Of a DNA stretch of 64,000 bases, positions 54,026 to 62,741 are shown one piece after another. Source of the DNA: Candidatus Marispirochaeta associata. GTDB lineage: Bacteria; Spirochaetota; Spirochaetia; JC444; Marispirochaetaceae. Below the pieces are notes generated by a model, which saw only the letters and a program-made list of their open reading frames with translations, did no database searches and had not been told where the DNA came from. The stretch spans positions 310,001-374,000 of the forward strand of contig JWTM01000532.1 of NCBI GenBank assembly GCA_001749745.1, given 5' to 3'. Position numbers and translations under genes: made by a program. How positions within the stretch are numbered: position 1 is the first letter of the stretch; the number at the start of each line of letters is the position of its first letter.

Positions 54026-54099
54026 GCCGACTTAGCTCAGCTGGCCAGAGCACGTGACTTGTAATCTCGGGGTCTTCGGTTCGAATCCGAAAGTCGGCT
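54026..54099 (+). tRNA. tRNA-Thr (anticodon TGT)
   Basis: 74-nt cloverleaf. Acceptor GCCGACT/AGTCGGC. The anticodon stem CGTGA/TCTCG has one central T:T mismatch and loop CTTGTAA. T-stem TTCGG/CCGAA with loop TTCGAAT. Discriminator T. Its 3' half is repeated at 54276, and it is the probable integration site of the island. Confidence 0.95.
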
Positions 54100-54293
54100 C
54101 TCCAGGCGCTCCACTTACGGAGCGCCTTTTTTTATTTTTCCTTGCAGGGTAACCACTTACGGGATACACTATTCATACAGTGATTTTGCCTGATAAGGCA
54201 GAAATGAGCCGTTTTTGGGTACATTGTACCCATCTATTCGGGTGGAGATATTGGATTTTGTGTACACGGCATGTTGGTCTTCGGTTCGAATCC
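54071..54293. repeat. 18-bp direct repeat of the tRNA-Thr 3' region (candidate att sites)
   Basis: GGTCTTCGGTTCGAATCC occurs at 54071-54088 within tRNA-Thr and again at 54276-54293, just before the integrase ribosome site. After it the second copy keeps CGAA following one inserted C. Such a repeat is the usual footprint of a tRNA-targeting tyrosine recombinase. The spacing is only 205 bp, so the second copy marks either a deleted inner element or a tandem attachment site. Confidence 0.75.
54104..54133 (+). terminator. Terminator of tRNA-Thr
   Basis: AGGCGCTC/GAGCGCCT stem with 8-nt loop CACTTACG and seven T residues. Confidence 0.9.
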
Positions 54294-54312
54294 CGAATAT
54301 GGAGGACACCCT
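54134..54312 (+). other. Non-coding leader of the integrase with inverted repeats
   Basis: No gene is seen here. It holds a perfect inverted repeat GGGTACATTGTACCC (54217-54231), a short hairpin TGCCTGATAAGGCA (54187-54200) and a 10-bp repeat CCACTTACGG (54153-54162, also 54111-54120 in the terminator loop). The second att-like copy is at 54276. These could be recombinase arm sites or an operator. Confidence 0.5.
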
Positions 54313-55488
54313 ATGCCACGAAAACGCGGAACCGGAAAGCCATATCGCTTTAGAATCCGAAAATTGAAGACTGGCGATTATTATTACGTGATGTTCCGAT
54401 CACAGCCAGGGAAATGGATCGCCACAGGGTGCCAAACCCGGGATGAGGCTGAGATCTGGGCTGCAAACTACGAGATCACCATCAAACCTGACGTTCAAAT
54501 GACCCTCAGGGAGTTTACAAACGGATTCTATGACCCAGGATCGCCATGGCTCCGCCGAATGGCAGCAAAGGGTAGGAGCTTCACGGAACGGCATTTGGTT
54601 AAAATGCGGGGAAACCTCAAAAACTATATCCTGCCTGAGTTCGGCAATCTGATCCTGCCGGCAATCAAACAGCGGGATATCGATGATTACCTCCTGGATC
54701 TAAAATCGATTCGGGAAAATACCAAGCCCTTGAAGGCGGATGCGAAGAACAAGGTGATCATCACCTTCAGGCACATCATGCAGGAAGCAGTCTCTCAAGG
54801 CCTGATCGAACGAGACCCCACAGAAGGCATTGTGTGGTTCAAGGACGCCGTTGAGAGTGAAAGAGGTATCTTTACCCCAGAAGAGCTGAAGAAGCTCTTC
54901 CCGCCCATCCTCGACGAAATGGTGGTGATTTGGGGAACCTTCGAATGGGCTGCATATTTTATGGTTATGGGCTCATGTGGGCTGCGTCCCCAGGAAGTCG
55001 GGGCTCTGACTTGGGGGAAATGGTCGAGGACGCTGCATGGGCTCGCGATCACGCATAAGATCGATCCTGATACGAAACAACGGGTAAAAGGGACGAAGAC
55101 AGGCTATTCGAAAGCGGTTGCCCTACCAAAACGGGCTGAGGAGCTCCTCTTGCTTCACGAAGCTACGTCTGATCGTACTGATCCGGAGGATTTGATCTTC
55201 CATCCCAGGAATGCCTCTGGTGGGATTCAGGCGGATACAGCTAATAAGCATTTTAAAGGTGCCTGTAATAGAGCAGAGATAGAGCGAGGTGATCGTACAC
55301 CATATAGCCTGAGGCATAGCTTTAATACATATGCACTCCAACTATTGGACAGAAAGGAAGTGCAGGTGCTCATGGGGCACAGAACCCACATGATGACCCA
55401 AAGATACGATCACCCTACAGATCATCAGCTTATACAACGAATTCCGTCGGGAATATGGGAAAAGATAAACCTACTCTGGGAAGAGTAG
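54313..55488 (+). CDS. Tyrosine recombinase / integrase
   Basis: 391 residues from ATG 54313, preceded by GGAGGA at 6 bp. An open frame from 54271 runs through the att-like repeat and is not a likely start. The N-terminal arm-binding part is followed by a core SAM-like domain and the catalytic domain. The first Arg lies in CGLRPQE (about 224), the His/Arg box is YSLRHSF (about 333), then LMGHRTHMMTQRY with the nucleophile Tyr (about 365). It presumably integrates into the tRNA-Thr gene next door. A hairpin CCTACTC/GAGTAGG covers the stop. Confidence 0.95.
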   Translation: MPRKRGTGKPYRFRIRKLKTGDYYYVMFRSQPGKWIATGCQTRDEAEIWAANYEITIKPDVQMTLREFTNGFYDPGSPWLRRMAAKGRSFTERHLVKMRGNLKNYILPEFGNLILPAIKQRDIDDYLLDLKSIRENTKPLKADAKNKVIITFRHIMQEAVSQGLIERDPTEGIVWFKDAVESERGIFTPEELKKLFPPILDEMVVIWGTFEWAAYFMVMGSCGLRPQEVGALTWGKWSRTLHGLAITHKIDPDTKQRVKGTKTGYSKAVALPKRAEELLLLHEATSDRTDPEDLIFHPRNASGGIQADTANKHFKGACNRAEIERGDRTPYSLRHSFNTYALQLLDRKEVQVLMGHRTHMMTQRYDHPTDHQLIQRIPSGIWEKINLLWEE

Positions 55489-55551: not shown

Positions 55552-56430
55552 ATGGAAGTACAATCGGTAATCTCTCCATATGAAGAACTTATTGCATATG
55601 AGATTCTTATGGCTTCTGGATATAGTACAAAAAAAATCATAAATACTATCTCTAATAATGACACTATCTCTGTAAAAAACATTCTAGACAAGGATCTAAG
55701 TAATAAGCTCTTTGACGAGCATGACATCAGAAGAAATATTGAGAAGCATATAGAATCTAAAATTGGAACATTCTCAGTTGTTATTAAGGATCAAATTCAG
55801 TATCCGGACACTCTCAAAACAGCAAATCACCCACTTGGGCTTCTCTATTATAGGGGGGATCTATCTCTTCTCAACAGAAGATCAGTTTCAGTCGTCGGCT
55901 CTAGAAAGCCTTCAGATGAAGGGTTACGCAGGGCGAAAAAGATTGTAAAAAAGTTGGTTCGTGAAAACTTTAACATTGTCTCTGGCCTAGCTCGAGGTAT
56001 TGACACTATTTCGCATCAAACTGCAATTGAGGAAAATGGGACTACAATAGGCGTTATTGGGACTCCTATTGATCAGTATTATCCCAAAGAGAACCAATCT
56101 TTGCAGGATTATATTGCCGGAAACTTTCTATTACTATCACAAGTACCATTCTATAAATATGCCACTGAACACTTCAAAGCACATAGATATCATTTCCCAG
56201 AGCGAAATGTAACCATGTCGGCAATATCTGAAGCTACGGTAATCATTGAGGCATCCGATACAAGCGGCACACTTATTCAAGCCCGTGAGTGCTTGCGACA
56301 AAATCGTAAGTTATTTATTTTAAAATCCTGTTTTGATAATCCAAGGATTACATGGCCTCACAAGTACCTTGAGCGGGGAGCAATCAAGGTAGAAGATTTT
56401 GATGATGTAATAGAAGCTTTAAATAAGTGA
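55552..56430 (+). CDS. DprA/Smf-like Rossmann-fold protein on the island
   Basis: 292 residues. The DprA family core has SVVGSRKPS (113-121), SGLARGID (144-151), GTPIDQYYP (about 170-178) and a TMSAISEATVII strand followed by SGTLIQA, all typical. The N-terminal part (1-95) is mostly helical. The C-terminal winged-helix of RecA-loading DprA is absent. The gene is AT-rich, unlike the host. Its stop overlaps the PRTase start by 1 bp (TGATG), so the two are coupled. The chromosomal DprA would be elsewhere; this copy is more likely a specialised member. Confidence 0.88.
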   Translation: MEVQSVISPYEELIAYEILMASGYSTKKIINTISNNDTISVKNILDKDLSNKLFDEHDIRRNIEKHIESKIGTFSVVIKDQIQYPDTLKTANHPLGLLYYRGDLSLLNRRSVSVVGSRKPSDEGLRRAKKIVKKLVRENFNIVSGLARGIDTISHQTAIEENGTTIGVIGTPIDQYYPKENQSLQDYIAGNFLLLSQVPFYKYATEHFKAHRYHFPERNVTMSAISEATVIIEASDTSGTLIQARECLRQNRKLFILKSCFDNPRITWPHKYLERGAIKVEDFDDVIEALNK

Positions 56431-57038
56431 TGATAAAAATGTGGGTTAAAATTGATCGTCTCAGACTCTATGATCGCCCTTTTTTAAATGAATCTGATGA
56501 ATGCTACTTTGCGCGCGAGCGTCTAGTTGGCGGCAGTTTTCGTGATAGTGACGGAAACCAATTAATAACTAACCTACAAATACCACTTAATGAGACTCAT
56601 AGACTACAGCATAAAACCGCAGCTATTAGACAGTTCGCACAAGAACTAAATTATTTCCCCTTTGAGAAAAACAGTTACATTATGCCGATGCCAAGCTCTA
56701 AGACTGAAGACCATCCTGAATACGACAATAGAATAGAGAGGGTTTGTCGACTATTTTGCAAGAATCAGGATTTAGGTGTTAAATTTCTGTGTCCTATTGT
56801 TAATACCGTAGATTTTAAAAGTTCGAAAAGTGGTGGAACTAGAAGCGTCCAGGCTTTTAAAGACGCTTACATGTGTGAACTGCTCCCATCTGACTGTATC
56901 AATGTTTACATAGTTGATGATGCACTTACAATGGGAACTCACTTTCGAGCAACGGCAGACTTGCTTAGAGAAAGTAAGTCTGATCTTAATATATTTGGAC
57001 TTTTTTGGGTCATCAATGTACACAAGTTAAGTGAATAG
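56430..57038 (+). CDS. ComF-like phosphoribosyltransferase-fold protein
   Basis: 202 residues from ATG 56430; a GTG one codon earlier also exists. The PRPP-binding loop is YIVDDALTMGTHF (about 160-172), matching the type I PRTase pattern of two acidic residues then T-x-G-T. The segment MPMPSSKTEDHPEYDNR (about 86-102) resembles the ComF P(V/M)P..K loop. There are no zinc-finger Cys at the N-terminus as in ComFA/ComFC. It is coupled to the DprA-like gene. Substrate unknown. Confidence 0.82.
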   Translation: MIKMWVKIDRLRLYDRPFLNESDECYFARERLVGGSFRDSDGNQLITNLQIPLNETHRLQHKTAAIRQFAQELNYFPFEKNSYIMPMPSSKTEDHPEYDNRIERVCRLFCKNQDLGVKFLCPIVNTVDFKSSKSGGTRSVQAFKDAYMCELLPSDCINVYIVDDALTMGTHFRATADLLRESKSDLNIFGLFWVINVHKLSE

Positions 57039-57179: not shown

Positions 57180-58361
57180 TTATAAATCGAAAGTAGCCTG
57201 TTTACTCGGCTTATCAATAGTCTCATCTGTCCATAATCCTCGCTTCAATCGTTCTTTTCGAACCTTATCAGTAAACAATGTATTTAGATTATCTCTATGT
57301 TTTTCTAGGAAGACCTTTTCAGAGTCAATAATACTGAATCGCTGAACTATTTCTTCGGGTGGACCTATTTCGCAACCTATCCATAGCCGTTGTTTGAGTT
57401 CTGACACAATGTATGTTGATCCAGATCCTCCAAAGGGGTCAAACACTGTGTCACCAGGATTACTACTCATTTCAATAATTCTATCTAGTAACTTTATCGA
57501 AAGCTCATTTGAACCATTGCGCCTTTTGTACTTTGCATGTCTTACAGGAGGTATATCTGTCCATACATCAGATATATTTACTCCCGCCGGATTCATTTTA
57601 GATTTATACCCACCATAATCTTTTAGGTCTCCATAGCATTTTGGGCAAATATCCATAGGTATACGGTCAGGATGAAATGCCCTTGGCTTTTCTCCTTTGC
57701 AGAAGTATATCAAAGAATAATGGGAAGGATACAACCTACCCGGTATTGGAAGACTATATTTCATGCTAATCGCAATCCAGTTTCTAAAAGTTAGATGGCG
57801 TTCAAGAAAGTTGACTACTTTACTGTTCCATTTTGGAAGATTATAGATAAATAGCGATCCGCCATCTTTTAATAACCTTACACATTCAACAAGCCAATCC
57901 TCCATCCACTCTATATACTTATGTTCAGCTATGTTATCGTTCATCTTCGATGGATAAAGCTTATTAAGGTTAAATGGAGGATCAGCAAAGATCAGATCAA
58001 ATTTTTCATCTTCAAAATGTGACATCAGATCAAGACAATCATTTTGGTAAAGTTTACCATACTTACTAGTATAAACTTCCTTCGGTTCAGAAGTTAGAGC
58101 TTTCGCGACATCATCCAATATCTCATTTCTTTTTAATTGTTCTCGCACATGAGAATCAAAGACTTCCCATGCTACTTTCAATGATACCTCCGAAATCTGG
58201 AAATATTCTAAAATCTTATGCCTATCCTCACCAACTGGACACTTGTTTGATTGGAAATACCACTTAAGTCTGTCATAGGAAATTTCGATACTTTTGGATA
58301 ACGATCTTAGAACTTTGCTGTCTGCATTAAACAGAGATTGAATATCAACTGGACTGTTCAT
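57180..58361 (-). CDS. Type II DNA methyltransferase (beta-class amino-methyltransferase)
   Basis: 393 residues. DPPF (127-130) comes before the SAM motif DPFGGSGST (about 308-316), the beta-class order. An NLPKW segment and a CPKC pair (239-242) lie between them. About 100 extra N-terminal residues are helical and could be a dimer or recognition part. DPPF favours N6-adenine, though N4-cytosine is not excluded. It is divergent from the controller gene, with the C-box between. Confidence 0.93.
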   Translation of the reverse strand: MNSPVDIQSLFNADSKVLRSLSKSIEISYDRLKWYFQSNKCPVGEDRHKILEYFQISEVSLKVAWEVFDSHVREQLKRNEILDDVAKALTSEPKEVYTSKYGKLYQNDCLDLMSHFEDEKFDLIFADPPFNLNKLYPSKMNDNIAEHKYIEWMEDWLVECVRLLKDGGSLFIYNLPKWNSKVVNFLERHLTFRNWIAISMKYSLPIPGRLYPSHYSLIYFCKGEKPRAFHPDRIPMDICPKCYGDLKDYGGYKSKMNPAGVNISDVWTDIPPVRHAKYKRRNGSNELSIKLLDRIIEMSSNPGDTVFDPFGGSGSTYIVSELKQRLWIGCEIGPPEEIVQRFSIIDSEKVFLEKHRDNLNTLFTDKVRKERLKRGLWTDETIDKPSKQATFDL

Positions 58362-58456: not shown

Positions 58457-58693
58457 ATGACTATTGAAGAATCATTCGGATCTGTAATTCGTAATTTTCG
58501 AACCGAACAAGATATATCCCAAGAAAAGCTAGCTCTCGAATGTGGACTTGATAGAACATATATTTCACTTCTTGAACGTGGAATGCGACAACCTACACTA
58601 AAGACAATAATTAAGTTGGCGGCAGTTTTAGGTGTCAGTGCCTCAGACATCATAGAAAAATCGGAGACTCTTTTTTCTAATGAAAATAAATAA
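58457..58693 (+). CDS. Controller (C) protein of the R-M system, XRE-type HTH
   Basis: 78 residues, one helix-turn-helix domain of the XRE/Cro type: RTEQDISQEKLALECGLDRT followed by YISLLERG. Size and position fit C proteins, which activate their own operon and the endonuclase gene after a delay and often repress the methylase. The stop overlaps the endonuclease start by 14 bp. Confidence 0.92.
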   Translation: MTIEESFGSVIRNFRTEQDISQEKLALECGLDRTYISLLERGMRQPTLKTIIKLAAVLGVSASDIIEKSETLFSNENK

Positions 58694-59276
58694 GACAGAA
58701 TTTTTAATCCACAATAGTGAACTTCTCGATAAGATTGAAGTAAAAGAAGTTTTTGAACAAATATATCATTCGATCTCAATCATTTCTTGGCCTGAAGACT
58801 CTGATTCATTTACCATATACCCAGGTAAACATGCAAATGGAGTTGTGCCAATTAAGAAAGCATGCATGCTGCAATTAAGCGAATATAATTGGGATCTTGA
58901 ACGACGTATGGAACTTGGATCTAGGTTGAAGCCTGGCAAAGTCGATGCTGTAAAGGAAATAATAGGTACCGGAAATTTTGCTGTCGAGTGGGAAACGGGA
59001 AACATTTCATCTAGCCACAGGGCCTTAAATAAAATGTCTTTGGGACTTATGGATGGTGAATTGATAGGTGGTGTATTGATTGTTCCATCTAGACTCCTTT
59101 ATCCATATCTAACCGATAGGATAGGCAATTTTGCTGAGTTAGAACCTTATTTTCCTTTATGGAGAAGCTTAGATGTAAAACGCGGGCTACTGGGTGTGAT
59201 AGAGATTGAACATGATTATGAGTCGTTCGATGTTGCTCCCATTAAAAAGGGGACAGATGGACGGGCACTAAGATAA
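58680..59276 (+). CDS. Type II restriction endonuclease (BamHI/BglII-like fold, predicted)
   Basis: 198 residues. Position (C-overlapping, opposite the methylase) is that of the R gene. A candidate active site is D89 with E103-W-E105 (VEWETGN), the E-x-E pattern of BamHI rather than the usual E-x-K. A later IEIEHDY block could complete it. Length fits a homodimeric enzyme. The recognition sequence cannot be inferred. Confidence 0.82.
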   Translation: MKINKTEFLIHNSELLDKIEVKEVFEQIYHSISIISWPEDSDSFTIYPGKHANGVVPIKKACMLQLSEYNWDLERRMELGSRLKPGKVDAVKEIIGTGNFAVEWETGNISSSHRALNKMSLGLMDGELIGGVLIVPSRLLYPYLTDRIGNFAELEPYFPLWRSLDVKRGLLGVIEIEHDYESFDVAPIKKGTDGRALR

Positions 59277-59949: not shown

Positions 59950-61281
59950 ATGGGTAAGATTATAGATATAATAGAGAATAACAAGTTTTTATACCTAGTA
60001 TTCTCCTTGTTTATCTTTGCTCTTGTCACTGTGATATTATTGTTTGGTGTCCATGTAACTATCCCGCGGATATTATTAGTCACGATTACCACCATCTTGT
60101 TTGCTCTGTACAGTAGGATCATGGGTGTGCTTGTAGGTGCGCTATCAATGGTGATTCTTGCTATATCGTTCAAGAGACTAGGTGCTGATGAATTTGCTTT
60201 ATCCATGCAACAAATCATGACAGTAGGTATATTCATAAATGCAATCGTCTCTTACACAATTGGTACGCTTAAGATATCCTATTTAAAGAACCGATCAATT
60301 TTAAAGATTGTGGAAAATTCAAAAGCACAGTATCAAAAAGTTGTAGACCACATCACTGAAGGAATGCTTGTAATTAACCGTGAAGGGTATATCAGCTTCA
60401 TGAATAAGTCGATGGCTATCATCCTTGGTAAGAGTGTTAAGGACGTCTACTTCCATATCAGTGTAGTACCGATGAATAACGATGAGCTCAATATTGAAGA
60501 ACAATTAAAGCCATGTGAGCAAGGAAAAACAGTGAAGATTTCCTTTGACTACATGCATCCAGATAATGAAGTTAGAAGATTAGAATTGATCAGCAACCCA
60601 TACATTGATGAGCACGGAATTTATGAGGGTAGTTTAGGATTTATCAATGATGTAACTGAAATGCGAGATCTCGAATCCCGATATGAGCATGAAAGAACCA
60701 AGAATGAAAAGATTATACAGGAAATGGATCACCGTCTCGGGAATACACTCACTCTTATTCGAGCCTATCTTAATATATATCTTGCAGACCAAAATTTAGA
60801 TAAAAATCAAAGTTTTGTTAAAGTAGAATTGATCATTCAGGTTATAATGATTCTGTACAGAGAATTTTATACAAATATTGATACACCTATTGTTTCGTTA
60901 AAAAGCTTGATCTTACGTACTGCAGATATTTTAAAAGAACGATATCCCGTAGGAACTCTTCAGATAGAGTGCAATCTAAGTGACATTTTCTTGGAGCCAG
61001 AAAAGGCCACGCCATTTATTATGCTGGTTACTATATTATCATCGCATATAATAGATCAAGAAATGGATATTTATAGTAATCATGATAAGCTGTTTCTTGG
61101 ATTGGCTAAAAACGAAACCGGTGCAGAACTTCGCTTCAAGCTTGAAACTGAGCAGGATAGTGAAATGTCAAACATACTAGAATCTTCCTCTGCATTAGAG
61201 GAGATATCAACGGCACTTCTACATCAGTTTAACGGCAACCTGAGTCACAATAATAGAAATCAGCTTCTTCTCTCTTATTAG
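59950..61281 (+). CDS. Membrane sensor histidine-kinase-like protein with PAS domain, degenerate ATPase
   Basis: 443 residues. Several TM segments (about 12-35, 41-57, 60-76, 90-108) are followed by a PAS domain (about 130-235, containing VVDHITEGMLVINREGYI) and a coil. A HisKA_2/HWE-type phospho-acceptor helix follows: His261 in MDHRLGNTLTLIRAYLNI. The C-terminal ATPase part (about 320-440) lacks a clear N-box Asn (ATPFIMLVTILSSHII) and G boxes, so it may not bind ATP. No response regulator is nearby. Confidence 0.75.
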   Translation: MGKIIDIIENNKFLYLVFSLFIFALVTVILLFGVHVTIPRILLVTITTILFALYSRIMGVLVGALSMVILAISFKRLGADEFALSMQQIMTVGIFINAIVSYTIGTLKISYLKNRSILKIVENSKAQYQKVVDHITEGMLVINREGYISFMNKSMAIILGKSVKDVYFHISVVPMNNDELNIEEQLKPCEQGKTVKISFDYMHPDNEVRRLELISNPYIDEHGIYEGSLGFINDVTEMRDLESRYEHERTKNEKIIQEMDHRLGNTLTLIRAYLNIYLADQNLDKNQSFVKVELIIQVIMILYREFYTNIDTPIVSLKSLILRTADILKERYPVGTLQIECNLSDIFLEPEKATPFIMLVTILSSHIIDQEMDIYSNHDKLFLGLAKNETGAELRFKLETEQDSEMSNILESSSALEEISTALLHQFNGNLSHNNRNQLLLSY

Positions 61282-61331: not shown

Positions 61332-62741
61332 TTACTGTGTATTCTTGCTCTCCTCAGAATGAAGTGGCACATTGTCCAAGTAATCGGAGATGGGCTCAGC
61401 AATCTTTTTTTCTGCGACCTTAGGCGCAGGTTTTTCCCAATTTTTTAAATGCTGAACATAACATTCATAGAAATCAAGAAGCATCTCCTCGATAATGGAA
61501 ACGAATTTCTTCCGATTCGAGAAGCTCTTACCAAAATCCCTCACATACACAAGCTTTATGGACCGAATTTCTTTCCCTTTAATCTCATCAATGATCCTAT
61601 CAATATCGCCAATGAGAAACCTATCCGCGTGGCTTGTGTTTTTGATACCGACCTCTATAATCGTCTCTGGGTGAAGCTTCAAATAGAGCTCAGAATCTTT
61701 CTTCTCACACAGGTTTAGTTGATTTCTGAACCACCCGATTTTCCCTTTTTCCGTTTTATCCGCGGGCGGAATAAGATCTACACTCATTTCAATTGTTCGT
61801 TTCTCTAAAAGTCCACAGACAGTAATATCAGAGACCGCACCCTTTACTCGAAATGACGAAACTAACTCCTTCTTTTCGATCACATGCTTCTTATCAGCTT
61901 CTAATCGGACCTTTAAGTCATTTTTCGCTTTGGTAGATCCTAATGTTACAAATACTCCAAGTTTTTTGCTGAGGATAAGTGCCATATCTTTTTCTTCTTG
62001 TTGCCAGCTACTCACTGCATCCTCTAAGTCTGAGTCCGATGCTTTTAGTCTAGCGCCGGTATTAATCCGCTCGATTAAATCTTTCCACCCGGCTTTCATT
62101 TGGTTGAACCCAGAAACTCCACACTTATCATTCTCTAGATAAGCGACTACCTCTTTCATAATCTCGACCTGGTCTTGATCTTCAATATTAATATCATTCT
62201 TAAAGAGCAAGATATGAGCAATAGTAAGAATGTAGGTCCAGGAGAAGTGATAGAGACTAACGTCCTTTGGGGCTTTAATAGGAATGGGGAATTGACTTGA
62301 AGTCGATACAAACTGATTGGATATAGTAACCAGACGCGGGATTGAGTACCTCTTTGCAATCTCCAAATATTTCTGTATCTGATCTTCCCTTAATTCATTA
62401 GATTCGTTCTTCATTTCGAAGAGGGCTGCATCTTTGATCTTTCCACTTTTCACTACCAATGCAAGTCCGTCAACACGACTATCTTCAAATCCAGGAAGTG
62501 AAACTTCTGTATAGAAGAATAATTGTCCGCCTCTGGGCATCTTTATGTCAGAGAAGATCATGTCGCGGAATTCATCAATCATGCGAAGTGCAGAAAGAAA
62601 AACTGATGTAAGCGCCATTTCATCACCAGCCTTAAGGACCGGGATTAATCGGGCGGGTCGAACCTGTATCTCTCCACTACTGCGAAACTCGTCAAAATCA
62701 ACTTTGGACAAACCGATTAAACTCGTTAACTTCTTTGACAT
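61332..62741 (-). CDS. PD-(D/E)xK nuclease-like protein, stand-alone (469 aa)
   Basis: The first 200 residues show a restriction-endonuclease fold: E79 strand, D91 in RVDGLALVV and E109-M-K111 in ALFEMKNES, followed by a helix RLVTIS-type strand. The remainder (220-440) is charged alpha/beta without a clear domain, and the tail (445-469) is Pro/Lys-rich. No helicase or methylase is next to it. It could be an effector of a defence module or a DNA repair-type nuclease. It overlaps nothing and lies 17 bp from the VasI-like gene. Confidence 0.75.
   Translation of the reverse strand: MSKKLTSLIGLSKVDFDEFRSSGEIQVRPARLIPVLKAGDEMALTSVFLSALRMIDEFRDMIFSDIKMPRGGQLFFYTEVSLPGFEDSRVDGLALVVKSGKIKDAALFEMKNESNELREDQIQKYLEIAKRYSIPRLVTISNQFVSTSSQFPIPIKAPKDVSLYHFSWTYILTIAHILLFKNDINIEDQDQVEIMKEVVAYLENDKCGVSGFNQMKAGWKDLIERINTGARLKASDSDLEDAVSSWQQEEKDMALILSKKLGVFVTLGSTKAKNDLKVRLEADKKHVIEKKELVSSFRVKGAVSDITVCGLLEKRTIEMSVDLIPPADKTEKGKIGWFRNQLNLCEKKDSELYLKLHPETIIEVGIKNTSHADRFLIGDIDRIIDEIKGKEIRSIKLVYVRDFGKSFSNRKKFVSIIEEMLLDFYECYVQHLKNWEKPAPKVAEKKIAEPISDYLDNVPLHSEESKNTQ

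What the first reader, a model, noticed from the sequence alone, without database searches (positions are those of the whole stretch)
55552..57038. Coupled DprA-like and ComF-like phosphoribosyltransferase pair: candidate undescribed immune or DNA-handling system
A shortened DprA-like protein (no winged helix) is translationally coupled with a PRTase that retains the PRPP loop but lacks the ComF zinc finger. Both are competence-type folds, on a mobile element next to an R-M system. I recall that DprA-PRTase associations have been proposed as conflict systems from comparative genomics, but I cannot verify this. One hypothesis: the DprA-like part senses foreign single-stranded DNA or a nucleotide and the PRTase alters a nucleotide pool or modifies a base or protein.
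Basis: partly seen in the sequence, partly recalled or inferred. Interest (0 to 1): 0.7.

Follow-up and report, generated by a model that had tools for sequence, protein, structure and literature searches.

The report
Prophage-borne ShosTA anti-phage toxin–antitoxin pair
The two coupled genes are a divergent copy of ShosTA, an anti-phage toxin–antitoxin system already described in E. coli, carried here as cargo of a prophage beside a BamHI-type restriction system; it is a good annotation, not a new kind of system.

Summary
The 292-aa DprA-like gene (55552-56430) matches PADLOC ShosA (E 1.5e-85). The overlapping 202/203-aa phosphoribosyltransferase (PRTase) gene matches PADLOC ShosT (E 1.2e-23). 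Fold searches with confident models find solved E. coli ShosA (8zva) and ShosT-PRPP (8zvc). The pair behaves as one unit elsewhere: 48 of 49 genome loci found with ShosT have ShosA just upstream, 67 of 80 viral-contig loci found with ShosA have ShosT just downstream, and the families co-diverge (r = 0.83). Here the pair lies directly after the integrase of a ~42.6-kb prophage in tRNA-Thr (22-bp att repeats), next to a BamHI-family R-M system. Published work shows phage defence by DprA+PRTase pairs and a ShosT toxin held off by ShosA. Most likely function: abortive infection, in which a PRPP-using toxin disturbs nucleotide metabolism and is restrained by DNA-binding ShosA. One real difference: this is the short, PRTase-only ShosT; the biochemically studied E. 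coli ShosT is about 430 aa, and its closest relative examined here matches HAD hydrolase models before the PRTase. The short form is already a PADLOC model. Verdict: new member of a known kind, low interest.

The parts
55552..56430 (+). shosA: DprA-like antitoxin/DNA-binding protein, 292 aa (N-terminal helical region, Rossmann domain 74-280, no winged helix)
   Evidence: PADLOC ShosA PDLC03961 E 1.5e-85; Pfam PF02481; 42-46% identity to plasmid/phage ShosA; model pLDDT 88.5, folds like 3uqz and 8zva ShosA
56427..57038 (+). shosT, short form: PRTase toxin, 203 aa from GTG or 202 aa from the more likely ATG at 56430; PRPP loop VDDALTMGTHF (D164 D165 T168 G170), PxPxSK motif 87-92, D100, R102
   Evidence: PADLOC ShosT PDLC03962 E 1.2e-23; conserved residues; model pLDDT 93.7, matches 7p0h ComF and 8zvc/8zvd ShosT
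56427..56430 (+). gene overlap (GTGA/TGATG) between shosA stop and shosT start, consistent with translational coupling
   Evidence: sequence; same order and overlapping or abutting genes in relatives
54271..55488 (+). tyrosine integrase of the prophage
   Evidence: Pfam PF00589 E 2.5e-16
54080..54101 (+). one att site: 22-bp direct repeat at the 3' end of tRNA-Thr (54026-54100); second copy at contig C529:406640-406661, beyond the window
57180..58361 (-). N6/N4 DNA methyltransferase of the adjacent R-M system (neighbour, not part of ShosTA)
   Evidence: PADLOC MTase_II PDLC03238 E 1.4e-125; Pfam PF01555
58457..58693 (+). HTH controller (C) protein of the R-M system
   Evidence: PADLOC Control_protein E 2.4e-18; PF01381
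58680..59276 (+). BamHI-family restriction endonuclease
   Evidence: Pfam PF02923 E 1.7e-61; PADLOC REase_II PDLC03435 E 5.9e-67

Best explanation
The pair is a prophage-encoded ShosTA toxin-antitoxin system that protects the lysogen by abortive infection. ShosT, a PRTase that binds PRPP, is the toxin. When released it consumes or diverts PRPP/nucleotides, which damages DNA metabolism and stops the infected cell. ShosA, a DprA-like Rossmann protein that binds DNA, is made first from the same coupled message and restrains or counteracts ShosT. Phage takeover (a phage-encoded product or abnormal replication DNA) tips the balance. Shown here: identity, fold, retained PRPP-loop residues, strict pairing, co-divergence, prophage location. 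Shown by others for related ShosTA: phage defence and toxin/antitoxin roles. Inferred for this copy: activity, trigger and exact chemistry.
For: PADLOC ShosA and ShosT hits. Foldseek PDB hits to ShosA 8zva (E 6.6e-18) and ShosT-PRPP 8zvc (E 1.8e-4). All nine opened phage/plasmid homologue records whose upstream DNA is present carry the pair in the same order. Pairing in 48/49 genome and 67/80 viral loci; several exceptions have a divergent or oppositely oriented PRTase that PADLOC also calls ShosT. Distance-matrix correlation r 0.83, Mantel p 0.001. Conserved D164, D165, T168, G170, P87, P89, S91, K92, D100, R102. Rousset et al. 2022: DprA+PRTase from a P2-like phage hotspot protects against T7 and lambda (PMC9122126). 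Review of Pu et al. 2025 (Nat Commun 16:3141): ShosT is a PRTase and pyrophosphatase that disturbs purine pools, ShosA binds DNA, T7 Gp0.7 is a trigger (PMC12593503). Reported activation by phage SSB (PMC10732053).
Against: Window ShosT is only 22-29% identical to the phage/plasmid short forms, and it departs from near-invariant positions (Y32 is R, K51 is Q, H134 is K), so full activity is not assured. It is half the length of the characterised ShosT. The closest long-form relative examined (L042) matches HAD models before its PRTase, and the window protein has no HAD match, so the published pyrophosphatase chemistry may not transfer. Whether the system tested by Rousset et al. was the short or the HAD-containing form could not be settled. 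No expression or phage data exist for this copy.
Confidence: 0.88

Rival explanations
1. The pair is a phage-replication or recombination accessory: the DprA-like protein loads recombinase on phage ssDNA and the PRTase supplies or salvages nucleotides for the phage.
For: DprA is a known ssDNA-binding recombination mediator (background stated in PMC9122126); the pair lies in a prophage beside the integrase.
Against: The same pair occurs on plasmids and bacterial chromosomes as well as phages; related pairs have measured defence and toxin/antitoxin activity; it sits in a cargo region with an R-M system.
Confidence: 0.06
2. It is a displaced competence/DNA-uptake pair (DprA plus ComF-like) of the host.
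For: DprA and ComF folds; H. pylori ComF is the top PDB fold match of the PRTase.
Against: The genome has other DprA genes (C61 and C261) and its best ComF match at C529:235264, all away from this locus; no ComF zinc finger; the pair is mobile and sporadic, with one strong ShosT match in 393 genomes of the phylum.
Confidence: 0.02
3. A PsyrTA/RqlHI-type system, the sister DprA/PRTase toxin-antitoxin kind.
For: PADLOC PsyrA hits the DprA-like protein at 2.9e-30; RqlH toxicity maps to its PRTase domain (PMC4670107).
Against: The toxin has no RecQ helicase domain (203 aa); PsyrT does not match it in PADLOC; ShosA scores far better than PsyrA (285 vs 104 bits).
Confidence: 0.03

Closest known systems
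ShosTA, short-ShosT form (PADLOC PDLC03961/PDLC03962; e.g. E. coli plasmid pair WP_001367158/WP_000175354, Burkholderia phage Mana gp51/gp52)
   Same: Gene order, coupling, ShosA size and motifs, PRTase-only ShosT, mobile-element location
   Different: ShosT only 22-29% identical to the phage/plasmid forms, with substitutions at several near-invariant positions; host phylum otherwise lacks a strong match
E. coli APEC O1 ShosTA, structurally solved (8zva ShosA; 8zvb/8zvc/8zvd ShosT; Pu et al. 2025)
   Same: DprA-like partner and PRTase with PRPP loop; same fold
   Different: Characterised ShosT is 432 aa; its L042 relative matches HAD models in the N-terminal part, which the window ShosT lacks; in another HAD-containing ShosTA (Pf phage PfAC02a) the order is T then A
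PsyrTA / RqlHI
   Same: DprA-like antitoxin restrains a PRTase toxin (PMC4670107)
   Different: Toxin there is a RecQ helicase-PRTase fusion; no helicase here
ComF/ComFC and DprA competence proteins
   Same: Folds
   Different: No ComF zinc finger, no competence context, genes paired and mobile

Membership tests
ShosTA | DprA-like ShosA protein | tested here: met
   PDLC03961 E 1.5e-85; fold match to 8zva
ShosTA | PRTase ShosT protein with PRPP-binding loop | tested here: met
   PDLC03962 E 1.2e-23; DD-T-G loop conserved; fold match to 8zvc ShosT with PRPP-Mg
ShosTA | Two adjacent co-oriented genes that occur as a unit | tested here: met
   Overlapping ORFs; 48/49 and 67/80 paired relatives; co-divergence r 0.83
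ShosTA | N-terminal HAD-like domain of the long ShosT form (a subform feature) | tested here: not met
   203 aa, no HAD Pfam hit, aligns only to the C-terminal part of long ShosT; PADLOC also models a short ShosT, so this marks a subform rather than excludes membership
ShosTA | Toxicity of ShosT neutralised by ShosA; phage defence | not testable with these tools
   needs bench work; shown for relatives
PsyrTA/RqlHI | RecQ helicase fused to the PRTase toxin | tested here: not met
   toxin is a 203-aa PRTase alone; no PsyrT hit
ComF (competence) | N-terminal four-cysteine zinc finger | tested here: not met
   no CxxC pair in the protein (sequence); comF model only E 0.077
Housekeeping DprA | Equivalog-level DprA match and competence/housekeeping context | tested here: not met
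   below TIGR00732 cut-off (176 vs 191 bits); in a prophage; other DprA genes elsewhere in the genome

The most novel reading that the evidence does not exclude
Short, HAD-less ShosT proteins such as this one may form a mechanistically separate branch: a PRTase-only toxin that poisons the cell through PRPP/nucleotide diversion (or by modifying a macromolecule) without the pyrophosphatase step reported for the long ShosT.
Probability: 0.35. Interest if true: 0.4.

Novelty: new member of a known kind. Interest (0 to 1): 0.2.

Why it matters
It extends ShosTA to a prophage of a phylum in which the short ShosT is otherwise nearly absent, and shows the system travelling with a BamHI-type R-M system in a phage defence cargo. 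It also points to an open question: the published ShosT mechanism includes pyrophosphatase activity and a toxin twice this length, while a large, widespread set of ShosT proteins, this one included, is PRTase only.

Tried and rejected
Competence origin: rejected. PsyrTA/RqlHI: rejected, no helicase. PADLOC ShosT as a family search over the phylum was useless because it rings on most PRTases (365 of 393 genomes), so a profile from A3 replaced it. Full text of Pu et al. 2025 is not held, so its findings are cited second-hand. Foldseek against viral predicted structures gave nothing below E 0.001. Some viral ShosA loci looked unpaired by the short-ShosT profile; several proved to have divergent or oppositely oriented PRTases.

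Full report
Observation. The window has two + strand ORFs, 55552-56430 and 56427-57038, as described. The first is a DprA-like protein of 292 aa: Pfam DNA_processg_A at residues 74-280, with nothing after it. The second is a 203-aa PRTase. By alignment its likely start is the ATG at 56430, which overlaps the first gene's stop by one base, because the E. coli homologue starts at the equivalent residue. Pfam gives no hit for the PRTase at E <= 1, but PADLOC names it ShosT (E 1.2e-23) and its partner ShosA (E 1.5e-85).

Context. A tRNA-Thr gene lies at 54026-54100. The last bases of the tRNA gene plus one base (54080-54101) recur exactly once downstream in the contig stretch read, at C529:406640-406661. 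The integrase is at 54271-55488, and between the repeats lie terminase, major head and tail tubular/tail genes. So this is a ~42.6-kb prophage with podovirus-like tail genes. The pair is its first cargo after the integrase, followed by a complete R-M set with methyltransferase, controller and BamHI-family endonuclease. In the same genome, other DprA genes lie at C61 and C261 and the best ComF match at C529:235264, away from this locus.

Relatives. Five phage and eight plasmid records encode a relative of the PRTase at 27-33% identity. Ten of these thirteen were opened; for one of them, Pseudomonas phage U8, the record begins at the PRTase so the upstream side cannot be read. The other nine carry a DprA-like gene directly upstream in the same order, usually overlapping. 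They come from a P2-like Burkholderia phage, a Pseudomonas phage, and E. coli, Sphingobium, Rhizobium, Sinorhizobium and NT-25 plasmids. A scan of bacterial genome contigs with the PRTase alignment gave 49 loci, of which 48 have ShosA upstream. A scan of viral contigs with the ShosA alignment kept 80 loci, of which 67 have ShosT downstream. Several of the exceptions have divergent or oppositely oriented PRTases that PADLOC also labels ShosT. Distances in the two families are strongly correlated (r 0.83; no permutation above 0.11), as expected for interacting partners inherited together, although shared ancestry of linked genes contributes.

Structure. The PRTase model (pLDDT 93.7) best matches H. 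pylori ComF and then E. coli ShosT with PRPP-Mg (8zvc) and with phosphate (8zvd). TM-scores are moderate (0.52-0.56), so these are fold-level matches. The ShosA model (pLDDT 88.5) matches S. pneumoniae DprA (3uqz), a chain of the same length, and E. coli ShosA (8zva). The PRPP loop residues D164, D165, T168 and G170, the P87/P89/S91/K92 motif, D100 and R102 are kept. The window departs at R32, Q51 and K134 from residues conserved in about 90% or more of relatives.

Mechanism. From the literature: DprA+PRTase from the P2-like phage hotspot protects E. coli from T7 and lambda, and the authors propose DprA sensing and a PRTase suicide effector (PMC9122126). RqlH, a relative in kind, is genotoxic through its PRTase domain and is restrained by DprA-like RqlI (PMC4670107). 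A review of Pu et al. 2025 reports that ShosT is both phosphoribosyltransferase and pyrophosphatase, disturbs purine metabolism and causes DNA duplications and filamentation, while ShosA binds DNA and counteracts it, with T7 Gp0.7 as trigger (PMC12593503). Other work lists ShosTA among systems activated by a phage SSB (PMC10732053). By homology this pair should work the same way; its activity, trigger and substrate are inferred.

Difference. The solved E. coli ShosT chain is 432 aa. A plasmid homologue of it (L042, 414 aa, matching the solved chain end to end at E 1.8e-59) has HAD-hydrolase matches in its N-terminal part (just below the Pfam cut-off, E 3e-5) and the PRTase match in its C-terminal part. 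A Pf phage ShosT is annotated HAD plus PRTase. The window ShosT aligns only to the C-terminal part and has no HAD match. PADLOC holds separate models for the short (237) and long (427) forms. Assigning the pyrophosphatase activity to the HAD part is my inference. Three Rhizobiaceae plasmids carry both forms side by side (PADLOC-checked in L042 only). The figure legend of Rousset et al. mentions a HAD domain, so it is unclear which form was tested there.

Verdict. Interest is low; the one open point is how the short form acts without the N-terminal part.

Noticed in passing
G000 contig C261:75512-77103 (L046:5513-7104): A second ShosTA-like pair in the same assembly, in the opposite order (PRTase 231 aa, then DprA-like 306 aa, overlapping by 25 bases; PADLOC ShosT 1.3e-10, ShosA 1.5e-72), with a recombinase-domain ORF about 2 kb downstream. 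The assembly is 11% contaminated, so it may be another organism's.
   Followed up: partly
L042:3664-6579, L043:3629-5848, L045:3664-6579: Rhizobiaceae plasmids carry a short-form and a long-form (HAD-PRTase) ShosTA side by side and convergent; in L042 and L045 a serine protease gene (trypsin-like in L042) lies directly upstream of the long-form pair and may be a third component.
   Followed up: partly
58680-59276 with 57180-58361 and 58457-58693: BamHI-family restriction endonuclease with its methyltransferase and controller protein, inside the prophage.
   Followed up: partly
L165:4843-5487 and L186:4563-5114: In two viral contigs the ShosT-like gene lies on the opposite strand, convergent to ShosA, unlike the usual coupled order.
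   Followed up: no
59950-61281 and 61332-62741: Prophage cargo after the R-M system: a membrane PAS/HisKA_2-like sensor protein (443 aa) and a 469-aa protein with no convincing family match.
   Followed up: no
E. coli genomes, e.g. NZ_CP028429.1:1188434-1188883: 689 E. coli genomes match a short-form ShosTA query but only 42 cover at least 80% of it; most listed hits are a ~450-bp piece of shosT overlapping an annotated IS30 transposase, suggesting widespread decayed copies.
   Followed up: no
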